The translations under genes were made by a program, and so were the position numbers. Positions 25,363-39,171 of a stretch of DNA of 51,322 nt are shown piece by piece. Source of the DNA: Bacteroidota bacterium (GTDB taxonomy: Bacteria; Bacteroidota; Rhodothermia; Rhodothermales; Bin80); the NCBI GenBank assembly GCA_026708685.1, contig JAPOUL010000078.1, positions 1-51,322 on the forward strand, in the 5' to 3' direction. Numbering within the stretch: position 1 is the stretch's first letter; each line of letters opens with the position of its first letter. The notes beneath the pieces are model-generated. The model was given only the letters and a program-made list of their open reading frames with translations, was not told where the DNA came from and did no database searches.

Positions 25363-26277
25363 ATGCATTCTACTCGCAGAAATTTTCTAAAAACAAGTGC
25401 GCTTGCACTTGCTGCACTTCCTCTCACCACACCAGTGTGGGGCATGCCATCCAAAGAACTGTTCAAGATTTCGCTTGCTCAGTGGTCCCTTCATCGCTTA
25501 CTATTTGCAGGTGAGATGGACAATCTCGACTTTGCCGCTGTTGCTGCAGAAAGTGGAATTCTTGGGCTTGAGTACGTCAATCAATTTTTCATGGATAAGG
25601 CAGAGGATACCGACTATCTCAATGAAATGAAAAAACGTGCTGATGATCTGGGTTCCACCAGTATTCTCATCATGTGTGATCGTGAGGGGAACCTTGGAGA
25701 TCCCGATGCCGATCTGCGCCGTGAATCGGTGGAACGCCATGTAAAATGGTTAAGTGCAGCTAAACATTTGGGTTGCCACTCCATTCGTGTCAATGGCTAC
25801 AGTGAGGGAAGCTATGACGAGCAAATGAAACTCGTTGCAGATGGACTCCATCAACTCTGTGAAATCGGGGAGGAGTACGGCCTGCATGTCATCATTGAGA
25901 ATCATGGTGGCTACTCAAGTAATGGAAAATGGCTTGCCGATACGATTAAGATGGCCGATCATCCAAGAGCGGGCACGCTCCCTGATTTTGGTAATTTCCG
26001 CATAGATGCTGACAACACCTACGACTCCTACCGTGGCGTGGAAGAACTCATGCCTTACGCTACGGGCGTGAGTGTAAAAACGACGGTGTTTGATGATGAA
26101 GGCAACTCCAGTCCGCTGGATTATGAACGCATGACTCGAATTGTGTTGGCAGCTGGCTACAATGGCTATTTTGGCATTGAGCATAGCCCAGCCGATCGTG
26201 AAATCGAAGAGATTCGCGAAGTCAAGGCCGAGCTTGAAGCCGTCCATGAACTGCTCATGTCTGAAATGGATCAGTAA
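25363..26277 (+). CDS. Exported sugar isomerase/epimerase-like TIM barrel
   Basis: This 304-residue protein has a Tat-like leader (TRRNFLKTSALALAALP) followed by an AP-endonuclease-2-type TIM barrel, the fold of xylose isomerase and 3-keto-sugar epimerases. Metal-ligand segments typical of the family are seen: GLEYVNQFF early in the barrel, HVIIENHGG, TLPDFGNFRID and, near the end, GYFGIEHSP. Such Tat-exported family members sit in clusters with ThuA, Gfo/Idh/MocA and DUF1080 proteins, as they do here. It probably isomerises or epimerises an oxidised sugar. It is the second gene of a transcript with the ThuA-dehydrogenase. Confidence 0.88.
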   Translation: MHSTRRNFLKTSALALAALPLTTPVWGMPSKELFKISLAQWSLHRLLFAGEMDNLDFAAVAAESGILGLEYVNQFFMDKAEDTDYLNEMKKRADDLGSTSILIMCDREGNLGDPDADLRRESVERHVKWLSAAKHLGCHSIRVNGYSEGSYDEQMKLVADGLHQLCEIGEEYGLHVIIENHGGYSSNGKWLADTIKMADHPRAGTLPDFGNFRIDADNTYDSYRGVEELMPYATGVSVKTTVFDDEGNSSPLDYERMTRIVLAAGYNGYFGIEHSPADREIEEIREVKAELEAVHELLMSEMDQ

Positions 26278-27841: not shown

Positions 27842-28822
27842 ATGAAGAGTATCCAGTCATCTGTTCCTCAGAATCCAGATAAGGACTTAAAACTTGAGTC
27901 AATGGAGAGCATGCTTCTTCAAGAGGGCACGGGAATGGGGATGAAGACATTGGACCTATTTCCTATATTTCAATCTGAGTTGATTCACGGGGATGTTGTA
28001 GATGTTCTCAGTAAGTGTGATAGACAACATAAATTTGATGTAATTATTGCTGATCCTCCCTACAATATCGGCAAAGATTTTGGTCAGAGAACTGGGAAGA
28101 TGACACTTCCAGATTATGTTGAATGGTGTAAGGACTGGCTATCATTATGTTTCGAATTTTTATCTGAAAATGGAATCATATACGTGTACGGGTTTTCAGA
28201 AATACTTGCTCGGATATCTGTCTTGTATCCTGTTGAAAAACAACGGTGGCTCGTTTGGCATTACACCAACAAAACAGTTCCTTCGTCCAAGTTTTGGCAG
28301 AGATCACATGAAAGTATTCTTTGTTTGTGGAATTCAGAAACTGTACCGAATCTCGAAATAGACCAGATTCGTGAACCATATACGGAAGGATATAAAACTG
28401 CAATCGGTCGGACAAGGGCAGGTACGAAATCACGCTTTGGCGATGGCAAAGAAACGGTTTACCTTGATCATGGTGGGGCATTGCCTCGTGACGTTCTGAA
28501 AATACCCGCATTGGCTGGGGGTGCGGGTGCACGGGAAAGATGGTTTATGTGTTATGATCACGACAGGAAAGTCCTTCCTCCTTCAGAGATCAATAACTAT
28601 AGAAACTGTCGAATAATGAAGCACCCAACTCAAAAGCCCATGGAACTCACTCGTAGATTGATTCAGTCTCGTATTAAAGGATCGGATGGTAGAGTGCTGA
28701 TTCCTTTTGCTGGATCTGGTTCTGAATGTGTGGTAGCGAATGAATTGGGGATTGAGTGGATTGGCATCGAAATTAATGAAGAGTATGTAGAATTCGCAAG
28801 AAAATGGTTGGATCAGTATTGA
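27842..28822 (+). CDS. DNA amino-methyltransferase (N6-adenine or N4-cytosine), beta class
   Basis: This 326-residue methyltransferase has the catalytic motif D71-P-P-Y74 before the AdoMet-binding motif F289-AGSG293, the order of beta-class enzymes. It also has HPTQKP, the conserved segment just before the AdoMet site, and GIEWIGIEINEEYVEFAR after it. DPPY can serve either N6-adenine or N4-cytosine methylation, so the target base is uncertain. An alternative start at residue 21 or 24 is possible. It opens the restriction-modification-like island, and the 183 bases between it and the C5 methyltransferase hold no convincing gene. An AT-rich tract (27829-27836) lies just before the ATG. Confidence 0.93.
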   Translation: MKSIQSSVPQNPDKDLKLESMESMLLQEGTGMGMKTLDLFPIFQSELIHGDVVDVLSKCDRQHKFDVIIADPPYNIGKDFGQRTGKMTLPDYVEWCKDWLSLCFEFLSENGIIYVYGFSEILARISVLYPVEKQRWLVWHYTNKTVPSSKFWQRSHESILCLWNSETVPNLEIDQIREPYTEGYKTAIGRTRAGTKSRFGDGKETVYLDHGGALPRDVLKIPALAGGAGARERWFMCYDHDRKVLPPSEINNYRNCRIMKHPTQKPMELTRRLIQSRIKGSDGRVLIPFAGSGSECVVANELGIEWIGIEINEEYVEFARKWLDQY

Positions 28823-29005
28823 GGCTAACGCCATGTATGGACCAACTCTTGCGTCAACTGATCAAACGGATACCATGACTGTTTTACCGCATGGGTAAGC
28901 GTACTCTGTTACGCTTGTCTGATGGAGAAAAAGTTACTCTGATTGAGAAATCATCTAAGTTAAGCGTATAAGTACTCGTTTGATCTATTTGTTGATTAGA
29001 TTCAA

Positions 29006-30064
29006 ATGTCTGAGAGTATTCCCATCAAAGCTTTTGATCTGTTTTGTGGCATAGGAGGACTATCCTATGGCATGCAGATGGCAGGCATTCCCGTTGTTGC
29101 CGGATTGGATAGCGATCCAACATGTCGTTATGCTTATGAGCAAAACTGTAATGCTACATTTATCCAAACGGATATCCGAACATCAAATTATTCAGATATT
29201 TCCTCTTATTTCAACGGAGCAAAGTATCGTATCCTTGTTGGATGTGCCCCATGCCAGCCATTTTCTGCTCACACGGCAAAGATTGGAGCAGATCGTAGAA
29301 GCGACAACAGATGGGATCTAATTGATGAATTTTTGAGATTCATTGTTGACGGAAGACCAGAAATCGCCTCCATGGAAAATGTACCCGGACTCAGAAAAGA
29401 AGATGTGTATGTAACCTTCAAGGATTCCTTGGAGGGTTTGGGATATCAGGTCGTGGATGGTATTGTGCAATGTGAACATTATGGAGTGCCTCAAAAGCGT
29501 CGTCGTTTAGTCTTAATCGCTTCCTTACTGGGTGATATATCCTTGCCTGAGAAAAGTCTGAATACACCGATCTCTGTAAACGAATCCATAGGGCATCTTC
29601 CCCATCTTGACAATGGTAAGGCGAGTCCAGAGGACGCAATGCATGTGAGCAGGCAGCTATCTCCTCTAAATTTGAAACGGATCAAGGCTTCTGTTCCCGC
29701 TGGAACATGGAACGATTGGCCAGAGGATTTGCTACTGGAGTGCCATAAAAAAAGTAGTGGTAAAACGTACTCCTGCGTTTATGGGCGAATGAGTTGGGAT
29801 AAACCCTCTCCCACGATTACCACGAATTTTTATTCATACGGCTCTGGGCGTTTTGGTCATCCCGAACAAGATAGAGCGTTGAGTATGCGGGAAGGAGCAA
29901 TATTGCAATCATTTCCAGAGGATTATAAATTTTCTTCTCCTGATCAGCCATGTTCTCTGAGTGCATTGGGCAGACATATTGGTAATGCTGTCCCTCCGCT
30001 ACTGGGTCAAGCGATTGGTCTATCTATGAGGAAACATATCGTACAATTTGATGGCACAATTTGA
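29006..30064 (+). CDS. DNA (cytosine-5) methyltransferase
   Basis: This 352-residue enzyme has the ordered C5-methyltransferase motifs: I (D11-LFCGIGG), IV (P82-C83-Q84-PFS with the catalytic Cys83), VI (E124-N-V), VIII (GVPQKRRRLVLIAS) and X (GRHIGNAVPP). The target-recognition region lies at about 215-280. Its 3' end overlaps the ATG of the GHKL-nuclease by 14 bases, so methylase and putative nuclease are co-translated, as in type II restriction-modification pairs. A second methyltransferase of different chemistry lies upstream. Two modification enzymes may protect the two strands of an asymmetric site or two bases of one site. Confidence 0.95.
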   Translation: MSESIPIKAFDLFCGIGGLSYGMQMAGIPVVAGLDSDPTCRYAYEQNCNATFIQTDIRTSNYSDISSYFNGAKYRILVGCAPCQPFSAHTAKIGADRRSDNRWDLIDEFLRFIVDGRPEIASMENVPGLRKEDVYVTFKDSLEGLGYQVVDGIVQCEHYGVPQKRRRLVLIASLLGDISLPEKSLNTPISVNESIGHLPHLDNGKASPEDAMHVSRQLSPLNLKRIKASVPAGTWNDWPEDLLLECHKKSSGKTYSCVYGRMSWDKPSPTITTNFYSYGSGRFGHPEQDRALSMREGAILQSFPEDYKFSSPDQPCSLSALGRHIGNAVPPLLGQAIGLSMRKHIVQFDGTI

Positions 30065-32024
30065 ATTGAAGTGTGGCTTAAATGCTCTGAATCATTTAGG
30101 CATTAATTTATATAGTAATGTTCCGGCTGTCCTATCTGAACTCATTGCTAACGCGTGGGATGCCGATGCAAGTGAAGTACGTTTGACGGTACACCAAGCT
30201 GGTGAAAAGACCAAGATCGTTGTCATAGATGACGGTTGTGGGATGGACGAAAATGATCTCAATGATAAGTTTTTAACCGTTGGTTATCAGCGAAGAAAAG
30301 ATCAGAACGATGACTATACGTCCAACAGGAATCGTAAAGTCATGGGTAGAAAGGGTATTGGTAAGCTTTCGATTTTCTCAATCTCCGAACATATTCAAGT
30401 CTACACGAAGAAGAATGGTGAAACCATTGGGTTAGAACTTGATCATGAAAGTATTAAACAGGATATTGAAAATGGTAACCCACATTATCCTCATCCAATT
30501 GATGATATTCCCAAAGATTATCAAGTGAGTACTTTGACGGGAACGATCATCGTCTTGTCTCAACTAAAAAAACGTATTCAGAAAACAATATGCAGGAATT
30601 TAAGAAAACGTATTTCTCGGAGATTTAACGTTTGGTCTGAAGACTTTCGCGTATTCGTTGATGGCCACGAAGTAAGCATCACCGACCGGGATTATTTTAC
30701 CAAGCTTGAATATGTTGTTGTTTACGGTGAGTATGAGCAGTCACATTTTAAGCATCTTCAGGAGCAAAATCGTTTTGAGATCCGCGATCATTTTATTGAC
30801 GAAAAAAGAAACTATAACATTAAAGGGTGGATAGGTCTTGTCAAAAGATCAAATGTATTACAGGAGGGTGACGATAACCTGAACAAACTCGCCATTTTAA
30901 CTCGTGGTAAAGTTGCTTCTGAAGATATTCTTGAGACCTTCAGATTGGGAGGGCTTTATACAAAATTCTTGATAGGAGAATTAGAAGCAGATTTTCTAGA
31001 TTTAAGCAACGAGGATGATATAATAACGTCTAGTAGACAGGATTTTATTCGGGATGATGAGCGCTTTATTTCTCTGCGTGGGTTTGTAGAAAACGAGCTG
31101 AGTTTTCTTGAAAAACAGCGTATTCAATACAAGCGTGAGGAAGGTGTGCAGAAGGCCGAGGAAATTCCTGCCATTAAAGAATGGTTCAAGGAGCTTAAAG
31201 GTGATGCACGAAAATCTGCCACTAAGCTCTTCGCGAAAATTAATGTTATCGTCACGGAAGAGGAGCATAGAAAAACAATGTATCAGTATGGAGTATTGGC
31301 TTTTGAACATCTTCATCATAAGAAAAGGTTGAATGATTTAGACCACCTTGATATTCGCCAGCTTGATGCAGTTGTCCGTTTGTTTTCTGAATTAGACGAT
31401 ATTGAGGCTTCTTGGTATCACCAAATCACGCAAGGTCGCTTGAATGTGATTCGGAAGTTAATTCGTCACATTGAAGATAATGCTTATGAAAAAGTGATTC
31501 AGGAGCATATCTATACGCATTTGTGGTTACTGGATCCATCCTGGGATATGGCAACCGAAACCCCATATATGGAGCGTACGATCAAGAAAGAGTTTCAAAA
31601 ACTTTCTGAAACGAAAGCATCAAGTTCGGAGGTAGAAGGGCGGATTGACATCATCTATAAAAAGTCAACGGGTAAACATATTATCATTGAATTAAAGCGA
31701 GCCAGTGTCTGGACAGACACTCTTACATTACTTCAACAAGTAGAAAAATACAGGGAAGCCGTGATTCGTGAGGCGAGACAGGCCGGCGAAAGCGACTCTG
31801 TTGAAACGATTTGTTTGGTTGGGTGTGAGCTTAGAGATTGGGGTACTTCAGAGTCAAAGAAGTTATCTGAAGATACTCTAAAACCCAGAAATATTAGAGT
31901 CGTTACCTATCAGCAGTTAATTAAGGATGCTGAGATTGCATATCGAAACTATCTTGAAAAATCTATAGATAGAGGGCGAATCAGAAAATTATTGAATGCA
32001 ATTGAGCAGTATTCTTTTGAGTAA
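30051..32024 (+). CDS. GHKL (MORC/MutL-type) ATPase fused to a PD-(D/E)XK nuclease, candidate restriction enzyme
   Basis: This 657-residue protein starts at ATG 30051 inside the end of the C5-methyltransferase gene. The Bergerat ATPase is complete: N-box E30-LIAN34 followed by AWDADA, D60-DGCG64, and lid G99-RKGIG104. The middle region is helical. A segment HLWLLDPSWDMAT leads into the nuclease core R531-I-D533 and E547-L-K549 (D...ELK). This domain set with neighbouring methyltransferases matches MutL/MORC-like ATPases described in prokaryotic restriction-modification systems. It may belong to the HgiDII/BbrUII group of restriction enzymes, which I recall as having this build but could not search. 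It would cut unmodified DNA in an ATP-dependent way. It ends before a terminator-like hairpin. Confidence 0.88.
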   Translation: MAQFELKCGLNALNHLGINLYSNVPAVLSELIANAWDADASEVRLTVHQAGEKTKIVVIDDGCGMDENDLNDKFLTVGYQRRKDQNDDYTSNRNRKVMGRKGIGKLSIFSISEHIQVYTKKNGETIGLELDHESIKQDIENGNPHYPHPIDDIPKDYQVSTLTGTIIVLSQLKKRIQKTICRNLRKRISRRFNVWSEDFRVFVDGHEVSITDRDYFTKLEYVVVYGEYEQSHFKHLQEQNRFEIRDHFIDEKRNYNIKGWIGLVKRSNVLQEGDDNLNKLAILTRGKVASEDILETFRLGGLYTKFLIGELEADFLDLSNEDDIITSSRQDFIRDDERFISLRGFVENELSFLEKQRIQYKREEGVQKAEEIPAIKEWFKELKGDARKSATKLFAKINVIVTEEEHRKTMYQYGVLAFEHLHHKKRLNDLDHLDIRQLDAVVRLFSELDDIEASWYHQITQGRLNVIRKLIRHIEDNAYEKVIQEHIYTHLWLLDPSWDMATETPYMERTIKKEFQKLSETKASSSEVEGRIDIIYKKSTGKHIIIELKRASVWTDTLTLLQQVEKYREAVIREARQAGESDSVETICLVGCELRDWGTSESKKLSEDTLKPRNIRVVTYQQLIKDAEIAYRNYLEKSIDRGRIRKLLNAIEQYSFE

Positions 32025-32055
32025 TGGTCTGTGAAGGCCTTTGCCTGTTCACAGA

Positions 32056-32086
32056 AACCCTCTCAGGAGCATCTGTCAGGGTTTTT
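32056..32086 (+). terminator. Intrinsic terminator after the restriction-modification-like operon
   Basis: AACCCT (32056-32061) pairs with AGGGTT (32078-32083). An inner CAG/CTG pair sits around the GAGCAT loop, and a run of five T residues (32082-32086) follows. It lies 32 bases after the nuclease stop codon and probably ends the three-gene transcript. Confidence 0.65.
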
Positions 32087-32284
32087 CTGAAAAGGTAATC
32101 AATACGGCTTTGTGAAAAGCATGACCATAGTTTGAAATTCGTAAGAAATCAATCTACGAGTGATTTGCGGTGTTAACGATTTACCTACTCATTTGTATGA
32201 GAGAAGGCAATGCGATCATCGGGGTTTGCCTCGTAATGACTTCTATAATCAAATCACTTGTAGAAAACAATTACGAATCAGTGT

Positions 32285-33613
32285 TTATTTTGCACTGAGT
32301 TGATGTCCATCCCAATGAACCATGGTTTCCATCTCAATGGAGGCGTTGATCAAGTGTGCACAAGCGGCAGCATGATGTCCAACTTCAGCATCTTCTTTCG
32401 TAGGGTTTCCACTACGAATAGCGTTCAACCATTCTTGAATATGGATGGACATAGAGTCTTTTCCCTCAGCATGATACACCTCTTCACCAGCAACCATTGC
32501 AGGGGAGCGACTGGATGGGATTTCTTCATGACGAATCTCCGAATCTGCAATGTAGGCATCGGCCAAATCCTTTGGCCAGCTTGCTGTAATCCAGCTATTG
32601 CTTTCGTTAACACGTTCGGGGATAAATCGCAATCCACCACCAAAGACTAAGGATCCTTCCGTTCCAAGAATCCGCATTCCACCAGAATTCCCACCTTGAT
32701 TATTAAAGGTTCCACTCAGATTGACCATAAAGCCGTCGGGATATTTCAGAGACGCATTAATTGTATCGGGGACATCTCTGGAGTTGATCCAACGGTAAAG
32801 ATCTCCCATTGCAATCACCTGTTCAGGAATGGCTGAACCCATCAAGTAGTTGATCGTCGTACAGGTATGGACGTAGAGATCGGTGGACAGTCCACCAGAG
32901 TAATCCTTGTAGCAACGCCAACGGAAAAAACGCTCGGGGCTGTAGGGTCGCTTCGGGGCAGAGCCAAGAAATAAATCCCAATCTACGGTTTGAGGAGATG
33001 CATCGGGAGGAATCGGATAGATCCAAGCACCCGAAGCGGTGTTACGATTTGTGCTTGCCCGAATCATGGTGACCTGTCCGAGCTTTCCCTCCTGAATCAT
33101 TTGACGTGCCTTTTGAATGAGGATACTGTTCGGTCCAGGACTTCCTACCTGTACAGCGAGTTGATTGCTTCTCTGGGCCTGGATTATGTCGGCTCCCTCT
33201 TCAATGGAATAGGTCAGTGGTTTTTCAATATAGGCATGCTTACCAGCGTTCAACGAATCGACAGAATGTTGATAATGCCAATGATCTGGACTGGAAATCA
33301 CGACCGCGTCAACATCATCTCTTGAGATGATCTCACGATAATCGGCCATGGTATCTACGTTTCCCCCAATGCGGTCATTGATTCGCTCTAAGCGACCAGT
33401 GTAGGCATCACATGCAGCGACAATCTCTACTTCGGGAAATGCTTTGAGCGATTCAACCAGTCCATGTGCCCGAGCACCCGCTCCAATCATTCCGATCGTG
33501 ATACGATCGCTTGGAGGGACAAATTCAGGGCGTGCTCCCAGAGCAAGTCCGGCAGAGCCGAGTGCACTGGAACGTAAAAAATCTCTTCGTGAAACGGTAA
33601 AGTGTTGAGCCAT
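32285..33613 (-). CDS. Exported Gfo/Idh/MocA-family oxidoreductase
   Basis: This 442-residue NAD(P)-dependent sugar oxidoreductase has a Tat-type leader (SRRDFLRSSALGSAGLAL). The Rossmann motif is IGMIGAGARAHG and the family catalytic-lysine segment is HAYIEKPLTYS. Exported Gfo/Idh/MocA proteins with Tat signals are typical of Bacteroidota and planctomycetes. They carry a tightly bound nucleotide and oxidise or reduce sugars, including at carbon 3. It ends a minus-strand operon CBM9-DUF1080-Gfo: the DUF1080 stop is only 4 bases before its ATG. With DUF1080 next to it, a 3-keto-glycoside pathway is a reasonable inference. Confidence 0.92.
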   Translation of the reverse strand: MAQHFTVSRRDFLRSSALGSAGLALGARPEFVPPSDRITIGMIGAGARAHGLVESLKAFPEVEIVAACDAYTGRLERINDRIGGNVDTMADYREIISRDDVDAVVISSPDHWHYQHSVDSLNAGKHAYIEKPLTYSIEEGADIIQAQRSNQLAVQVGSPGPNSILIQKARQMIQEGKLGQVTMIRASTNRNTASGAWIYPIPPDASPQTVDWDLFLGSAPKRPYSPERFFRWRCYKDYSGGLSTDLYVHTCTTINYLMGSAIPEQVIAMGDLYRWINSRDVPDTINASLKYPDGFMVNLSGTFNNQGGNSGGMRILGTEGSLVFGGGLRFIPERVNESNSWITASWPKDLADAYIADSEIRHEEIPSSRSPAMVAGEEVYHAEGKDSMSIHIQEWLNAIRSGNPTKEDAEVGHHAAACAHLINASIEMETMVHWDGHQLSAK

Positions 33614-33617
33614 CAGA

Positions 33618-34616
33618 TTATAGAATTGGAGTTAATATAAGATTACGATAGAGGATACGACCATGATCCCCTTGCAAATAAATGGGGCCGGGAGAGAATT
33701 CGTCAGCAGTCATGGCTCCACCTGTGACACCATGAATAGGCTGATTATCAATGATCTTGGTTCCATTTAAGATGACCGTCAGGTGCCTCTGGTAGAGGGT
33801 TATATCCATAGATTGCCATTCGTCTGCCGGTTTTTCAGCATTCGCGGAAGGTTGAATCCGACTGTAGAGTGCCCCCATATGATGTTGGTTGAGATCCATC
33901 CCATACGTATCTGCAACCTGAATTTCATAGATCCCCCGTAGATAGACACCACTGTTACTTCCCTTAGGGATATTGACATCAAGCGTTAATCGAAAATCTT
34001 CAAAGGTAGAAACGGTGCGAAGATTTCCGTAGGAAATATACTCACCATCCTCAGATTGTACTGGATCATTGATGAGGAGGCCATCTTCTGCCTTAAATCC
34101 ATTGACCTGATCTTCATTGATCAAACTCCATCCTCTAAGGTCTACCCCATTAAATAGCTCCATCGGATCACCAAAAGTGATTTGAGAAAGATCAGGAGCT
34201 GGGGGTAATTCGGGAATTCGCGTCGCCTCAAAGTCAATCATCTGAGATCCGAACCCAGAATGATCAGGAAAATGAGCTACTCCCTTTATCTGATCACCGT
34301 CTGATTGTAGAGTGAACGTATTGGTGACGGTGAAACTTCGCGAGCTCCCGTCTTCTACATTCTGGTTGACGGTTTCTACTCTGGTCACCGTTAACACATC
34401 ATCAGTAATATTGACACTGGCGACGGGCAGGACGCTTCCACCGTACCATAATAGGGAGGCATCAAGAAGGCCCTGGTCATGGGTAATCTCCAACCAGCCA
34501 GCTCCTCCGGGTAAATGAAGTGTCCAGCGGCCTTCAAAAGAATCAGCCATTTCTTGAGCGAACACTGGCGTGACACATAGAGAGATGAAGAAGAAATGAA
34601 CGAATCGTAACAGCAT
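33618..34616 (-). CDS. Exported DUF1080 protein (3-keto-disaccharide hydrolase type)
   Basis: This 332-residue protein has a cleavable signal (FVHFFFISLCVTPVFAQ). Residues about 25-140 are a beta-rich domain. Residues about 155-330 are the concanavalin-like DUF1080 domain: LFNGVDLRGWSL, DFRLTLDVNIPKGSNSG and GVYLRGIYEIQVAD, ending GPIYLQGDHGRILYRN. DUF1080 members have been shown to cleave 3-keto-glycosides, which are made by oxidising a sugar at C3. Its place directly before the Gfo/Idh/MocA gene, and near the ThuA and sugar isomerase genes, supports that role. The substrate is unknown. Confidence 0.92.
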   Translation of the reverse strand: MLLRFVHFFFISLCVTPVFAQEMADSFEGRWTLHLPGGAGWLEITHDQGLLDASLLWYGGSVLPVASVNITDDVLTVTRVETVNQNVEDGSSRSFTVTNTFTLQSDGDQIKGVAHFPDHSGFGSQMIDFEATRIPELPPAPDLSQITFGDPMELFNGVDLRGWSLINEDQVNGFKAEDGLLINDPVQSEDGEYISYGNLRTVSTFEDFRLTLDVNIPKGSNSGVYLRGIYEIQVADTYGMDLNQHHMGALYSRIQPSANAEKPADEWQSMDITLYQRHLTVILNGTKIIDNQPIHGVTGGAMTADEFSPGPIYLQGDHGRILYRNLILTPIL

Positions 34617-34665
34617 GATAGGTTATGGATAGGTTGGTCTGATATAATGATAGGTTGAAGAAGGA

Positions 34666-35511
34666 TTATTCAGCACGCCTTTCGATGGGTTTCTGTGGTC
34701 CTGTTAGGATCATTCGCCCCCATGTCGCATCATCATCACCCGTCCCATAGATCATGAAATGTCCACCATAGGGGCCACCGTCTGGATCACAGTGAACGAT
34801 TTCGAACCCGTACAAATCTCCCACCTGCGGTGGAGTCCATCGCGGATCACTTTTTCCTAATGTAGGCATCATGCGTACCTTCGCTTCCAAAATAAAATCC
34901 GCCTCCGAGGTTCCCCAAGGGTTGAAGGTGAATTCATACGATACATCCTCGGCAGGAATAGGCTCCTCAATGCGTTGTTCATTTGCAGTTCCATGTCGCC
35001 ACCATGCTCCATAATCGGGCTTGGCGGCATCAGCCACAAAGCAGAATGCATTGTCACCCTGCCCCCAATACTCGGGTGCTTCGTCTCGGGGAGCTTCAAG
35101 AAAAAAGCAAATACTATCGCGTAGATACCACGCAAATGGTTCCTCTCCAGGGGCATCAACATCATTGACATTATCCTTGACTTCCGCACCAAAATACAGA
35201 TATTCCGAATCCCATGCCACATAATAACGAGCTTGCAGATCATCTTCAGGATGAGGCTCATTTCCATGATCCGTAAGGCGATTGCGCCGTCCATCGTCAT
35301 ACCAGAATGTGTGACGAAGCCTGTAAATATCCCAGACTCCATCCGAGAATGCAAAATCTTTCCACTCCGTCAAGTCCCCATCAATGTCTGGCGACATTGT
35401 TAATTGGGGTACCAGAAGTTTTACGGTCTCTGTTGGTCGGGGAGCGTCCTGAGCCACGACTGTGAGCCCAAAGAAGGCAAGCGATAGGAAGCATATGGTG
35501 CACTTCATCAT
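34666..35511 (-). CDS. Exported CBM9-like carbohydrate-binding protein
   Basis: This 281-residue protein begins with a signal peptide (CTICFLSLAFFGLTVVAQ). The rest resembles a family 9 carbohydrate-binding module: DIDGDLTEWKDFAFSDG, YYVAWDSEYLYFGAEVKDN, RDSICFFLEAP, and the terminal FEIVHCDPDGG and WGRMILTG. Such proteins bind sugar reducing ends or are accessory subunits of sugar-oxidising complexes. It is first in the minus-strand CBM9-DUF1080-Gfo unit, 49 bases upstream of DUF1080. Two adjacent ATG codons (35506-35511) can both serve as start. Confidence 0.82.
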   Translation of the reverse strand: MMKCTICFLSLAFFGLTVVAQDAPRPTETVKLLVPQLTMSPDIDGDLTEWKDFAFSDGVWDIYRLRHTFWYDDGRRNRLTDHGNEPHPEDDLQARYYVAWDSEYLYFGAEVKDNVNDVDAPGEEPFAWYLRDSICFFLEAPRDEAPEYWGQGDNAFCFVADAAKPDYGAWWRHGTANEQRIEEPIPAEDVSYEFTFNPWGTSEADFILEAKVRMMPTLGKSDPRWTPPQVGDLYGFEIVHCDPDGGPYGGHFMIYGTGDDDATWGRMILTGPQKPIERRAE

Positions 35512-36003
35512 AAAATTGAATGGCTTGGGTCATAAAATACAAGTTTCTGAGAAAAAAAGTGTTCTCTTTCGTATTCTTAATGGAATTGAGGTCCTCAAGT
35601 TGATCAATGGTGGTGATCACATGTCTGGCCAGCCCCCTGAAGTTAATTATCCTGCATGACATCTAATTGTTGAATTGAACGGATACTACAGGCTATCTTA
35701 ATAAATCATATTTCAGCGAATGCATCTGGGTTCAACATCATAATAGAACCATTGAATCGCCACCACGGAGGCACTGTGTCATCAAGAATGTTTCTCATTA
35801 TTGTAGCATGTATGATGTACACTGAGACTCATTTGCATTGATGGATACTCACTGTCTCTCATCTTGATGCATTCTTTCTTATCATGAAGGGAATGATTCC
35901 AATAACTTGTACATGGATTCCTGAGAATTCCCAATTTATTCCCGATAAATTCGTACTTTGCAATGATCTGTGAGTATACTCCCTTAACTTTTTGATTATA
36001 GGT
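35512..36003. other. Divergent intergenic region, no gene seen
   Basis: About 490 bases separate the divergent CBM9 operon and the SGNH-dehydrogenase-cytochrome gene. Frames in this region are short and composed like non-coding DNA. An ATTGAACGG variant of the nonamer found upstream of the ThuA gene occurs at 35674-35682. Promoters for both directions are expected here. Confidence 0.45.
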
Positions 36004-39000
36004 ATGCGTCTATCCTTCAATTCATCCAGTTTTTCCCGTCAAGTGCATTACACCATCGCCGTTGTCTTTGCAGCGATGTGTGTGCAGTGTGCTTCCAGTC
36101 CCTCTGGACCTCTTCAACCCGTTGAAAAAGATGATCATATTGTCTTGATTGGCAATAATTTATGCTCTCGCATGATGAACTATGGACACTTTGAGACGGA
36201 AATGCATCTGCGATTCCCAGATCATCAACTCACAATTCGTAACATGTGTGACGGGGGTAACACTTCTGGATTTCGGCCGCATCCTGGGCGCATTTCTCCT
36301 TGGGCATTTGCCGGAGCAGACAGCTTTTATACCGAGTTGGCCCAACCCTCAGATAGTCAGGGACATTTTGAAACTCCAGATGAGTGGTTGACAAGATTAC
36401 AGGCAGATATCATTATCGCTTTTTTTGGCTTTAATGAATCCTTCGCGGGTCTTGATCATGTAGCCTCCTTTGAGGCAGAAATGGATGCGTTAGTTCAACA
36501 TACGCAAGCCCAACTCTACAACGGAGAAAGTTCGCCTCATCTGATCTTAGTTACACCAATTGCATTTGAAGATCTATCGCATCTCAAGGATCTCCCAGAT
36601 GGTTCTCAGGAGAATCTCCATCTATCCGCGTATGCAGAAGCGATTCAGCGAGTCGCCGAAAAGTATCAACTCCCCTTTGCTGATGTTTACTCCCCCTCTA
36701 GAAAGTGGTATCGTGGTTCAAAGGATCCGTTAACGATTGATGGCTCACAGCTCAAGGATGAAGGGTATCAGCTCCTAAGTGAGAGTATTGTTGATCAAGT
36801 GTTTGGTGGTCAACAGAAATTAAACCCTCCTGCACATAGCCAGATTCTCAAGGCTGTCCACGATAAAAACTGGCATTGGCACAATGATTTTAAGATCCCC
36901 AATGGCGTACATGTTTATGGACGAAGATACAACCCTTTCGGACCGGATAATTATCCAGCTGAGCTTCAAAAGATACGGCAAATGACGGCGATTCGAGATA
37001 CCGCAATCTGGTATGCCGCCCAGGGGATAGTCATGGATGTAGAGGTAGCCGATGCACGCACACTTGAACTTCCAGAAGTGGTCACCAACTATGTTCCCAG
37101 TGAGAAAAATGGAGAACTTAGGTATCTATATGGTGATGAAGCGTTAGCTACTTTGACAGCTGCCCCTGGATACAAAATAGAATTGTTTGCATCGGAAGTG
37201 GAATTTTCTGATCTAGCAAATCCTGTTCAGATGTCCTTTGATAATAAAGGTCGATTGTGGGTTGCAGTCATTCCCAGCTATCCTCACTGGAAGCCGGGTG
37301 ATCCTCTGCCGAATGATAAACTGATTATTCTTGAGGACACCGATCAAGATGGTATAGCAGATCACCAAACGACTTGGGCGGACAGCTTGCATCTACCCGT
37401 TGGATTTGAATTAGCACCCGAAGGGGTCTATGTGAGTCAAGGCACCAATCTGGTGTTGCTCTCAGACACCGATGGAGATGATCATGCTGATACAAAGGAC
37501 ATTATCCTCAGTGGTTTTGATGATCACGATACGCACCATGTCATCAGTGCATTTACTGCTGATCCATCAGGTGCCATTTACATGGCTGAGGGAGTCTTTT
37601 TGCATACGAATGTTGAAACATCCTATGGTCCTTCTCGTGGGACTCATGGTGGATTTTTCCGCTATAACCCTCAACGACATCACCTTGAACGAACGGCACA
37701 AGTTTCCATCCCCAACCCATGGGGCATTGCTTTTGACAAGTGGGGGCAACCATTCTTTGCTGAAACATCGGGACCTGATGTTCGCTGGATGTTGCCCGCA
37801 ACAGTCAAGCCCCTTTATGGAATCTCGACGCACAAGTCCTTTAACCTGATTGAGGAGGCACATAAAGTACGCCCCACTTCTGGACTAGAATTTGTGTCAA
37901 GTCGACATTTCCCCGATGAGGTGCAGGGTGATTTATTGATCAATAATACCATTGGTTTTTTGGGGATGAAGCAGCATACGATGGAGGATGATGGAACAGG
38001 ATATACGAGTTCACATCGTCAGGATTTAATTCAGGGATCGGATGGAAATTTCCGCCCTGTTGACATGGAATTTGCTCCCGACGGATCGCTTTACTTTATT
38101 GACTGGCATAACGTATTGATTGGTCATATGCAACATAATGCCCGTGATCCCTTGCGAGACCATGAACATGGACGAATTTATAGAATCACCTATCCGGCAA
38201 GACCCTTAGTAGAACCCGCTAAGATTGACGGAGCAACGATTGACGAGTTACTTGACAATCTTATCTTGCCTGAATACCGCACTCGCTACCGTACACGCCG
38301 AGAATTACGAGGGCGTGATGCTAATGAGGTGATCGCAAGACTTGGTCCTTGGATGAATCAACTAGATTCAAATAGCGAACATTATGAACATCATCTACTG
38401 GAAGCATTGTGGGTGACTTGGGGGATCAATCAAGTTGATGAGGCTCTCTTAGAACGGTTATTGAACTCAGAGGATTTTAGAATTCGTGCTGCGGCTGTTA
38501 GAGTGCTGCGATACAATCCACAACTTGAACGACAGATTGAGCTGCTCACAACTGCTGCAGAGGATCTACATGGGCGAGTTCGGACGGAAGTGATGACCGC
38601 TGCATCTTGGCTGAATCCTCAACAAGGACAGCCAATTACCGAGAAAGCAAGTCAGCAAACGCTTGATAAATGGAACATGAATGTGGCCGTGACTGCCCTT
38701 GCTCATTTACGGGGTGAACCCGTACCCCCCTCCAAATCAGATGAAGATGCCCCTGGATGGGCAGCACCATTTTTAGGGTTGTATACCATTGGAAAGGAAG
38801 TCTATTCCAGAGATGGATACTGTTCTACATGCCACATGCCAGACGGCAAGGGACTTCCACAGTCTGGGTTTCCTCCACTTGCAGGCACTGATTGGGTGGT
38901 AGGAGATCCTGAAAGGTTGATCAAACTGACTCTGGATGGACTCATTGGTCCAATTACCGTCCTCGGAGAAGAATACCCCGGACATGTTCCGATGACTCCA

Positions 39001-39171
39001 TTTCGCAACCTTCTCACGGATGAAGAGGTGGCCGCAGTGTTGACCTATGTACGCAATGCATTCGGTAATCGTGCCACTGCGATTAGTCCTGAATATGTTG
39101 CCAAAATTCGGACGGACACCGCAGATAGGCAAGGCTACTATACCGTAGAGGAATTGATGAGCAATGAATAA
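36004..39171 (+). CDS. Multidomain lipoprotein: SGNH hydrolase, PQQ-type dehydrogenase, HEAT-like, cytochrome c
   Basis: The product is 1055 residues from ATG 36004; an in-frame TTG lies 12 bases upstream. The N-terminus is a lipoprotein-like signal ending CVQCASS. Residues about 45-265 resemble an SGNH/GDSL esterase (IVLIGNNLCSRM, ADIIIAFFGFNES, DEGYQLL). Residues about 380-725 are a membrane-bound-dehydrogenase propeller (GYKIELFASEVEF, DTDQDGIADHQT, RPTSGLEFVSS, FAPDGSLYFIDWHN). Residues about 735-900 are HEAT-like helices. Residues about 920-1025 are a cytochrome c with haem motif C940-S-T-C943-H944 and an axial Met candidate in HVPMTPF. The protein would oxidise a sugar or alcohol and pass electrons straight to its own haem. 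Confidence 0.9.
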   Translation: MRLSFNSSSFSRQVHYTIAVVFAAMCVQCASSPSGPLQPVEKDDHIVLIGNNLCSRMMNYGHFETEMHLRFPDHQLTIRNMCDGGNTSGFRPHPGRISPWAFAGADSFYTELAQPSDSQGHFETPDEWLTRLQADIIIAFFGFNESFAGLDHVASFEAEMDALVQHTQAQLYNGESSPHLILVTPIAFEDLSHLKDLPDGSQENLHLSAYAEAIQRVAEKYQLPFADVYSPSRKWYRGSKDPLTIDGSQLKDEGYQLLSESIVDQVFGGQQKLNPPAHSQILKAVHDKNWHWHNDFKIPNGVHVYGRRYNPFGPDNYPAELQKIRQMTAIRDTAIWYAAQGIVMDVEVADARTLELPEVVTNYVPSEKNGELRYLYGDEALATLTAAPGYKIELFASEVEFSDLANPVQMSFDNKGRLWVAVIPSYPHWKPGDPLPNDKLIILEDTDQDGIADHQTTWADSLHLPVGFELAPEGVYVSQGTNLVLLSDTDGDDHADTKDIILSGFDDHDTHHVISAFTADPSGAIYMAEGVFLHTNVETSYGPSRGTHGGFFRYNPQRHHLERTAQVSIPNPWGIAFDKWGQPFFAETSGPDVRWMLPATVKPLYGISTHKSFNLIEEAHKVRPTSGLEFVSSRHFPDEVQGDLLINNTIGFLGMKQHTMEDDGTGYTSSHRQDLIQGSDGNFRPVDMEFAPDGSLYFIDWHNVLIGHMQHNARDPLRDHEHGRIYRITYPARPLVEPAKIDGATIDELLDNLILPEYRTRYRTRRELRGRDANEVIARLGPWMNQLDSNSEHYEHHLLEALWVTWGINQVDEALLERLLNSEDFRIRAAAVRVLRYNPQLERQIELLTTAAEDLHGRVRTEVMTAASWLNPQQGQPITEKASQQTLDKWNMNVAVTALAHLRGEPVPPSKSDEDAPGWAAPFLGLYTIGKEVYSRDGYCSTCHMPDGKGLPQSGFPPLAGTDWVVGDPERLIKLTLDGLIGPITVLGEEYPGHVPMTPFRNLLTDEEVAAVLTYVRNAFGNRATAISPEYVAKIRTDTADRQGYYTVEELMSNE

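What the first reader, a model, noticed from the sequence alone, without database searches (positions are those of the whole stretch)
27842..32086. Compact island: two DNA methyltransferases of different chemistry plus a GHKL ATPase-nuclease
Seen: an amino-methyltransferase (DPPY), a cytosine-C5 methyltransferase (PCQ/ENV) and, overlapping it by 14 bases, a protein with a complete GHKL ATPase (ELIAN, DDGCG, GRKGIG) and a C-terminal D...ELK nuclease core, closed by a terminator-like hairpin. Known: MutL/MORC-type ATPases in restriction-modification systems were described by Iyer, Abhiman and Aravind (2008), and HgiDII/BbrUII-type restriction enzymes may share this build. Inference: an ATP-dependent restriction system in which two methylases of different chemistry protect one site or its two strands, which is not the textbook type I, II or III layout.
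Basis: partly seen in the sequence, partly recalled or inferred. Interest (0 to 1): 0.8.

Follow-up and report, generated by a model that had tools for sequence, protein, structure and literature searches.

The report
Two neighbouring restriction systems, one broken
The three genes are one complete restriction system of a known but little-studied type (a cytosine methylase plus a DNA-cutting enzyme built on a MORC-like ATPase), standing next to the surviving methylase of a second, separate system whose own cutting enzyme has been deleted.

Summary
In detail: all three proteins, their motifs, the 14-base overlap and the hairpin are there. The ATPase-nuclease scores 717 bits against NCBIfam's BbrUII/HgiDII restriction-enzyme model (cut-off 550). 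Its N-terminal ~400 residues model as a MORC ATPase module; its C-terminus is a PD-(D/E)XK nuclease with invariant E508, D533, E547xK549 and Q563xxxY567. A C5 methylase stands directly beside this enzyme in 60 of 75 relatives across phyla, so that pair is a known kind of system. The DPPY methylase is not part of it: it occurs beside none of the 75. In a sister species a 211-aa PD-(D/E)XK-like gene sits between the two methylases, and the window keeps its first ~24 codons as a remnant (28804-28878). The same methylase-nuclease pair lies alone on a Spiroplasma plasmid; related viral methylases mostly have their own small upstream ORF, two of TaqI type. With TCGA depletion in the two sister genomes that keep the methylase, this points to TCGA as its target (inference). 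'Two methylases for one site' is not supported as the design. One nuance remains: TCGA is the core of GTCGAC, the site of characterised family members, so both marks may still meet there. New member of a known kind.

The parts
27842..28822 (+). DPPY (beta-class, motif IV before FAGSG) adenine-type DNA methylase; surviving half of a separate type II system, TCGA inferred
   Evidence: PF01555 1.2e-35; 74% identical gene paired with a 211-aa nuclease-like gene in L063; conserved recognition block
28804..28878 (+). Remnant (first ~24 codons, then stop) of the 211-aa PD-(D/E)XK-like nuclease gene, overlapping the DPPY gene's end as in the sister species
   Evidence: tblastn 13/24 identical, E 5e-5 within the 230-base gap; position and translation
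29006..30064 (+). C5-cytosine DNA methylase, cognate of the downstream nuclease
   Evidence: PF00145 1.3e-51; same-strand C5 methylase adjacent to the nuclease in 60 of 75 loci
30051..32024 (+). BbrUII/HgiDII-family (paraMORC3-type) restriction enzyme, 657 aa: GHKL ATPase + S5-like domain + helical linker + nuclease
   Evidence: NF050001 717 bits, cut-off 550; AlphaFold2 model mean pLDDT 85.3; residues 7-404 align with MORC ATPase modules, Z up to 22.5
31530..32021 (+). C-terminal PD-(D/E)XK nuclease domain (residues ~494-657; E508, D533, E547, K549, Q563, Y567)
   Evidence: Residues invariant in 58 homologues; Pfam PDDEXK_4, SduA_C, HSDR_N_2 and NucS_C among 30 homologues
32053..32086 (+). 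Terminator-like hairpin
   Evidence: fold -27.5 kcal/mol for 32025-32095, z -2.83

Best explanation
Two independent restriction-modification systems lie side by side. (1) Complete: the C5 methylase and the 657-aa BbrUII/HgiDII-family nuclease. The methylase marks a cytosine in the family's site (GTCGAC in characterised members; not shown here). The nuclease probably dimerises through its MORC/MutL-like ATPase heads on ATP binding, clamps DNA, and cuts unmarked sites with its C-terminal PD-(D/E)XK domain. The domain build and conserved catalytic residues are shown; the clamp, the ATP requirement and the site are inferred. (2) Incomplete: the DPPY methylase belonged to a small type II system, probably TCGA-specific m6A, whose ~211-aa PD-(D/E)XK-like nuclease gene was deleted here, leaving ~24 codons and an apparently intact solitary methylase.
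For: System 1: NF050001 717 bits; model and fold match; invariant nuclease residues and Pfam nuclease hits; C5 methylase adjacent in 60 of 75 loci, 59 upstream. System 2: no window-type DPPY methylase beside any of the 75 nucleases; DPPY + 211-aa gene in L063, decayed in G005:C27 without C5/GHKL, and on a Spiroplasma plasmid without C5/GHKL; remnant in the window; viral relatives mostly with a ~200-270-aa ORF directly upstream, modelled best on solved restriction enzymes or TaqI-family. TCGA: recognition block conserved across partner types; TCGA observed/expected 0.50 and 0.47 with an intact gene, 0.63 with a pseudogene, 0.84-0.88 without; three TCGA hexamers rarest in G005 and G000 of ten genomes.
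Against: DPPY and C5 genes are linked in both species of the genus that have both, at different chromosomal places (L063 and the window), so some tie is possible. The remnant match is short. TCGA depletion rests on few, related genomes, and other palindromes are depleted too. No GTCGAC-specific depletion was seen. Nothing here shows activity.
Confidence: 0.82

Rival explanations
1. One reading: one ATP-dependent system in which two methylases of different chemistry protect one site or its two strands.
For: Close spacing and same strand; DPPY and C5 genes also neighbours in L063, at another chromosomal place; the inferred TCGA target lies inside GTCGAC.
Against: 0 of 75 nuclease loci have the DPPY gene; sister-genus systems L062 and L065 work with C5 + nuclease only; DPPY has its own partner nuclease and a remnant of it is in the gap.
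Confidence: 0.07
2. Nested protection: the solitary DPPY methylase is kept because TCG-m6A also covers GTCGAC, giving a second shield against the nuclease here and against two solitary nucleases elsewhere in the genome.
For: Inferred nested targets; solitary BbrUII-family nucleases over the cut-off at C170 and C148 with no C5 methylase or remnant beside them; the DPPY frame is open and its motifs intact although its nuclease is gone.
Against: Neither specificity is measured, and the effect of m6A on this nuclease family is unknown. The C5 methylase alone may protect against all three nucleases. Recent loss could equally explain an intact frame.
Confidence: 0.12
3. The GHKL protein is not a restriction enzyme but a chaperone or repair protein that happens to lie beside a methylase.
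For: Its ATPase part resembles Hsp90 and MutL; solitary copies exist.
Against: Equivalog match to BbrUII/HgiDII over the full length, invariant PD-(D/E)XK residues, overlap with a C5 methylase gene across phyla.
Confidence: 0.03

Closest known systems
HgiDII / BbrUII restriction-modification systems (NCBIfam NF050001)
   Same: Full-length match above the curated cut-off (717 against 550 bits); C5 methylase gene directly upstream and overlapping, as also reported for a BbrUII-like pair in Chania (PMC5005818).
   Different: Target not measured here; a solitary DPPY methylase and a nuclease remnant stand next to it.
paraMORC3 (Iyer, Abhiman, Aravind 2008, PMC2292703)
   Same: GHKL + S5 module followed by a RE-fold nuclease domain with E-D-ExK, in a restriction-modification context; standalone members were also noted there and occur in this genome.
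   Different: No helicase gene was seen among the neighbouring ORFs; the paper does not name HgiDII in its text, so the equation is mine.
MORC ATPase modules (Morc3, MORC2)
   Same: Fold of the N-terminal ~400 residues (Z ~21-22).
   Different: Low sequence identity (14-19%); a nuclease domain instead of chromatin-reader domains.
TaqI-type TCGA systems
   Same: Two relatives of the DPPY methylase (52-53% identical) lie beside TaqI-family nucleases.
   Different: The window's own former partner was of a different, 211-aa nuclease type; TCGA specificity is inferred only.

Membership tests
BbrUII/HgiDII family restriction enzyme | NCBIfam NF050001 score over the curated cut-off, full length | tested here: met
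   717 bits against 550, profile 1-659 of 659
BbrUII/HgiDII family restriction enzyme | Cognate C5 methylase gene adjacent | tested here: met
   Overlap of 14 bases; same arrangement in 59 of 75 relatives upstream
BbrUII/HgiDII family restriction enzyme | Recognises GTCGAC | tested here: inconclusive
   No GTCGAC depletion beyond that of TCGA (observed/expected 1.17); avoidance is not required of a protected site
BbrUII/HgiDII family restriction enzyme | Site-specific cleavage blocked by m5C | not testable with these tools
   Needs biochemistry
paraMORC3 (Iyer 2008) | GHKL and S5 domains plus C-terminal RE-fold nuclease with E-D-ExK | tested here: met
   Motifs and invariant E508, D533, E547, K549; MORC-module fold; PD-(D/E)XK Pfam hits
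MORC family proper | GhXhhpXXRhl motif in the S5 domain | not tested
   Only fold similarity was examined
PD-(D/E)XK nuclease (C-terminal domain) | Conserved catalytic residues and nuclease-family profile matches | tested here: met
   domain not folded or searched alone
YhdJ-type adenine methylase (NCBIfam PRK11524) | Score over the curated cut-off | tested here: not met
   109 bits against 292; general N6_N4_Mtase membership is met
TCGA-specific type II system (DPPY methylase) | Own nuclease partner | tested here: met
   L063, G005:C27 and the S. citri plasmid; in the window only a remnant
TCGA-specific type II system (DPPY methylase) | Methylates TCGA | tested here: inconclusive
   Indirect: TaqI-family partners of relatives, conserved recognition block, TCGA depletion that tracks the gene; no TaqI-family nuclease in the ten genomes of the genus
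Two-methylase, one-nuclease system | Both methylases co-occur with the nuclease in relatives | tested here: not met
   0 of 75 loci

The most novel reading that the evidence does not exclude
The solitary TCGA methylase has become a second, chemically different antidote (m6A next to m5C) that shields GTCGAC sites against a dispersed set of MORC-like nucleases, two of which have no methylase beside them: a nested-specificity protection network assembled from the wreck of a second system.
Probability: 0.12. Interest if true: 0.55.

Novelty: new member of a known kind. Interest (0 to 1): 0.36.

Why it matters
No solved structure of this enzyme family turned up in sequence searches of the PDB (hits were to the ATPase domain only), so a MORC-like ATPase fused to a restriction nuclease remains a good model for how prokaryotic MORC relatives use ATP on DNA. 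The case also shows how an apparent multi-methylase island can arise by stacking and partial decay of separate systems. It offers testable predictions: TCGA for an unassigned methylase clade, and a shared target for nuclease clades that swap partners.

Tried and rejected
(a) Three-gene co-occurrence: rejected by 75 nuclease loci. (b) GTCGAC avoidance as proof of the nuclease's site: no signal beyond TCGA. (c) The 211-aa gene in 394 genomes of the phylum: no match, but the sister genome known to carry it is not among the genomes listed there, so that empty answer says little; phages and viral contigs by peptide pattern: none. It was found through the methylase and on one plasmid. (d) A remnant C5 methylase beside the solitary nucleases C170/C148: none. 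(e) A TaqI-family nuclease as cause of the TCGA depletion: none in the genus. (f) PDB sequence search with the nuclease domain alone: no match; it was identified by Pfam hits and conservation instead. The nuclease domain was not folded alone, and the fold search of the full model was filled by the ATPase part. (h) A nuclease remnant beside the methylase pseudogene G004:C114: none found by tblastn. (i) The 2009 BbrUII paper is not held, so its data were not read.

Full report
OBSERVATION. The window holds three + strand genes: 27842-28822 (326 aa), 29006-30064 (352 aa) and 30051-32024 (657 aa from ATG; the ORF tool starts one codon earlier at TTG 30048). Pfam gives N6_N4_Mtase 1.2e-35, DNA_methylase 1.3e-51 and HATPase_c_3 2.5e-23. 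The hairpin is at 32053-32086.

WHAT THE LARGE PROTEIN IS. NCBIfam model NF050001 'BbrUII/HgiDII family restriction enzyme' is matched over its whole length with 717 bits (cut-off 550); PADLOC calls it a type II restriction enzyme. An AlphaFold2 model on 58 homologues has mean pLDDT 85.3. Residues ~7-404 align with Morc3, MORC2, SMCHD1 and Hsp90 (Z 22.5 for Morc3 with AMPPNP, 304 residues, rmsd 4.6). In 58 homologues from many phyla E508, D533, E547, K549, Q563 and Y567 are invariant. In 30 homologues the C-terminal domain hits PDDEXK_4 (8), SduA_C (7), HSDR_N_2 (3) and NucS_C (1). This is the E-D-ExK architecture that Iyer et al. 2008 described as paraMORC3 (PMC2292703). M.HgiDII is reported as an m5C methylase recognising GTCGAC (PMC5867850), and M.BbrUII is described as recognising GTCGAC (PMC5005818).

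NEIGHBOURHOOD TEST. A scan of GTDB species genomes gave 80 loci (L073 appears to be the same contig as L065, by length). Of the 75 in which the nuclease frame was recovered, 60 have a C5 methylase on the same strand within 300 bases, 59 of them upstream, mostly overlapping. None has a window-type DPPY methylase; two loci of one Latescibacteria genome have other, larger beta-class proteins nearby. So C5 + nuclease is the unit, and the DPPY gene is extra. Some loci end close to the gene, so 60 of 75 is a lower bound.

WHERE THE DPPY METHYLASE BELONGS. In sister genome G005 (L063) the order is DPPY (74% identical), a 211-aa ORF, C5 (78%), nuclease (37%). The 211-aa ORF overlaps the methylase end and carries GHDDMEDILIIENGNEYHIQIKSG, a D...QxK arrangement. 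The window keeps its start: overlapping the DPPY stop codon, 28804-28878 reads MVGSVLRLTPCMDQLLRQLIKRIP*, against MDRSVYRLTPRMEQNLRQSLS (tblastn 13/24, E 5e-5 in the 230-base gap). The rest is gone. The same pair stands without C5 or GHKL genes on a Spiroplasma citri plasmid (methylase ~60%, 211-aa homologue ~37%; both interrupted) and as a decayed second copy in G005:C27. G004 has a methylase pseudogene. On viral contigs most related methylases (44-60% identity) have a ~200-270-aa ORF directly upstream. Some are like the 211-aa protein (E, GxD and K conserved); a moderate-confidence model of one (mean pLDDT 65.5) aligns best with solved restriction enzymes (ThaI-like entry 3ndh Z 8.3, NaeI 6.5, EcoRV 6.3). 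Some form a second type (KTEIKFS). Two are TaqI-family (1.3e-35 and 6.5e-32).

LIKELY TARGET. The methylases' presumed target-recognition block (GRFGxGKETIY...GALPRDVxKIPALAGGAGxxER) is conserved whatever the partner nuclease, so the TaqI-family partners suggest TCGA. Independently, TCGA is depleted to 0.50 (95% 0.45-0.54) and 0.47 (0.43-0.51) of expectation in G000 and G005, which have an intact gene; 0.63 in G004 (pseudogene); 0.88 in G009, which has C5 + nuclease but no DPPY gene; and 0.85 and 0.84 in G003 and G001. Caveats: few genomes, shared ancestry, and other palindromes (CCGG, CTAG, in G000 also GCGC) are depleted too. GTCGAC is not depleted beyond TCGA.

PARTNER SWAPPING. In trees of 39 C5 methylases and 41 nucleases, the window's C5 is sister to L063's (96/93), whereas L063's nuclease groups with L064 and with the own-genome copy at C170 (80% and 78% identity), 37-38% from the window's. 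Nuclease partners have thus been exchanged while the methylase stayed, which suggests a shared target (inference). The own genome has three nucleases over the family cut-off (C21, C170, C148) but only one close C5 methylase; C170 and C148 have none beside them.

SITE. In G007 and G008 the orthologue of window 25363-26277 lies directly before the Gfo/Idh-like orthologue (window 32285-33613): an island-free arrangement, lacking also the 26582-27718 gene. G002 and G004 carry a different C5 + nuclease pair a few kb away, between orthologues of 34666-35511 and 35992-39171.

MECHANISM. Shown: gene order, domain build, conserved catalytic residues, family membership. Inferred: ATP-driven dimerisation of the heads around DNA (by analogy with MORC, MutL and Hsp90), cutting by the PD-(D/E)XK domain at unmethylated sites, m5C protection. 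ATP dependence of cleavage is an open question.

VERDICT. A known kind of restriction system next to the remains of another.

Noticed in passing
L054:5682-7709 (G000:C170), L055:5988-7946 (G000:C148), L056 (G000:C7): The same genome carries two more full-length BbrUII/HgiDII-family nucleases over the cut-off with no C5 methylase beside them, plus a broken one in C7. They may rely on the window's C5 methylase in trans.
   Followed up: partly
L057 (G000:C75), L059 (G000:C144), L058 (G000:C93): Further GHKL proteins in the same genome, two paired with other C5 methylases (GHKL gene before methylase in C75; methylase before a 768-aa GHKL protein in C144).
   Followed up: no
L063:4695-7717: Partner swap: C5 methylase 78% identical to the window's, but the nuclease next to it belongs to another clade (37%). 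L074 shows the reverse mix (nuclease 65%, methylase 47%).
   Followed up: yes
L113, L116, L117, L122, L124, L139 (uncultured Cenarchaeum, OY282369.1): At least six BbrUII-family nuclease loci in one archaeal genome, none with an adjacent same-strand C5 methylase in my scan; L117 has two GHKL nuclease genes close together.
   Followed up: partly
L155-L180 (viral contigs): One methylase clade with a conserved recognition block is paired with at least three unlike kinds of small upstream ORF (211-aa type, KTEIKFS type, TaqI family), sometimes between close sisters (L171 and L174).
   Followed up: partly
window 32285-39171; L060, L061, L317, L319: This stretch received BbrUII-type systems at two different points in different species, while G007 and G008 lack the island at the window's point.
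   Followed up: partly
window 28891-28971: A 26-codon ORF (MGKRTLLRLSDGEKVTLIEKSSKLSV*) in the gap behind the nuclease remnant; origin unexplained.
   Followed up: no
G000 genome sample (L184-L203): GCGC, CCGG, CTAG, TCGA and ACGT are all depleted to 0.4-0.55 of expectation, far more than in G001, G003 or G009, as if several restriction systems had shaped this genome.
   Followed up: partly
L153 (Spiroplasma citri plasmid pSciBLHMB-7, CP047444.1): An unannotated, interrupted DPPY methylase followed by a homologue of the 211-aa nuclease-like protein.
   Followed up: yes
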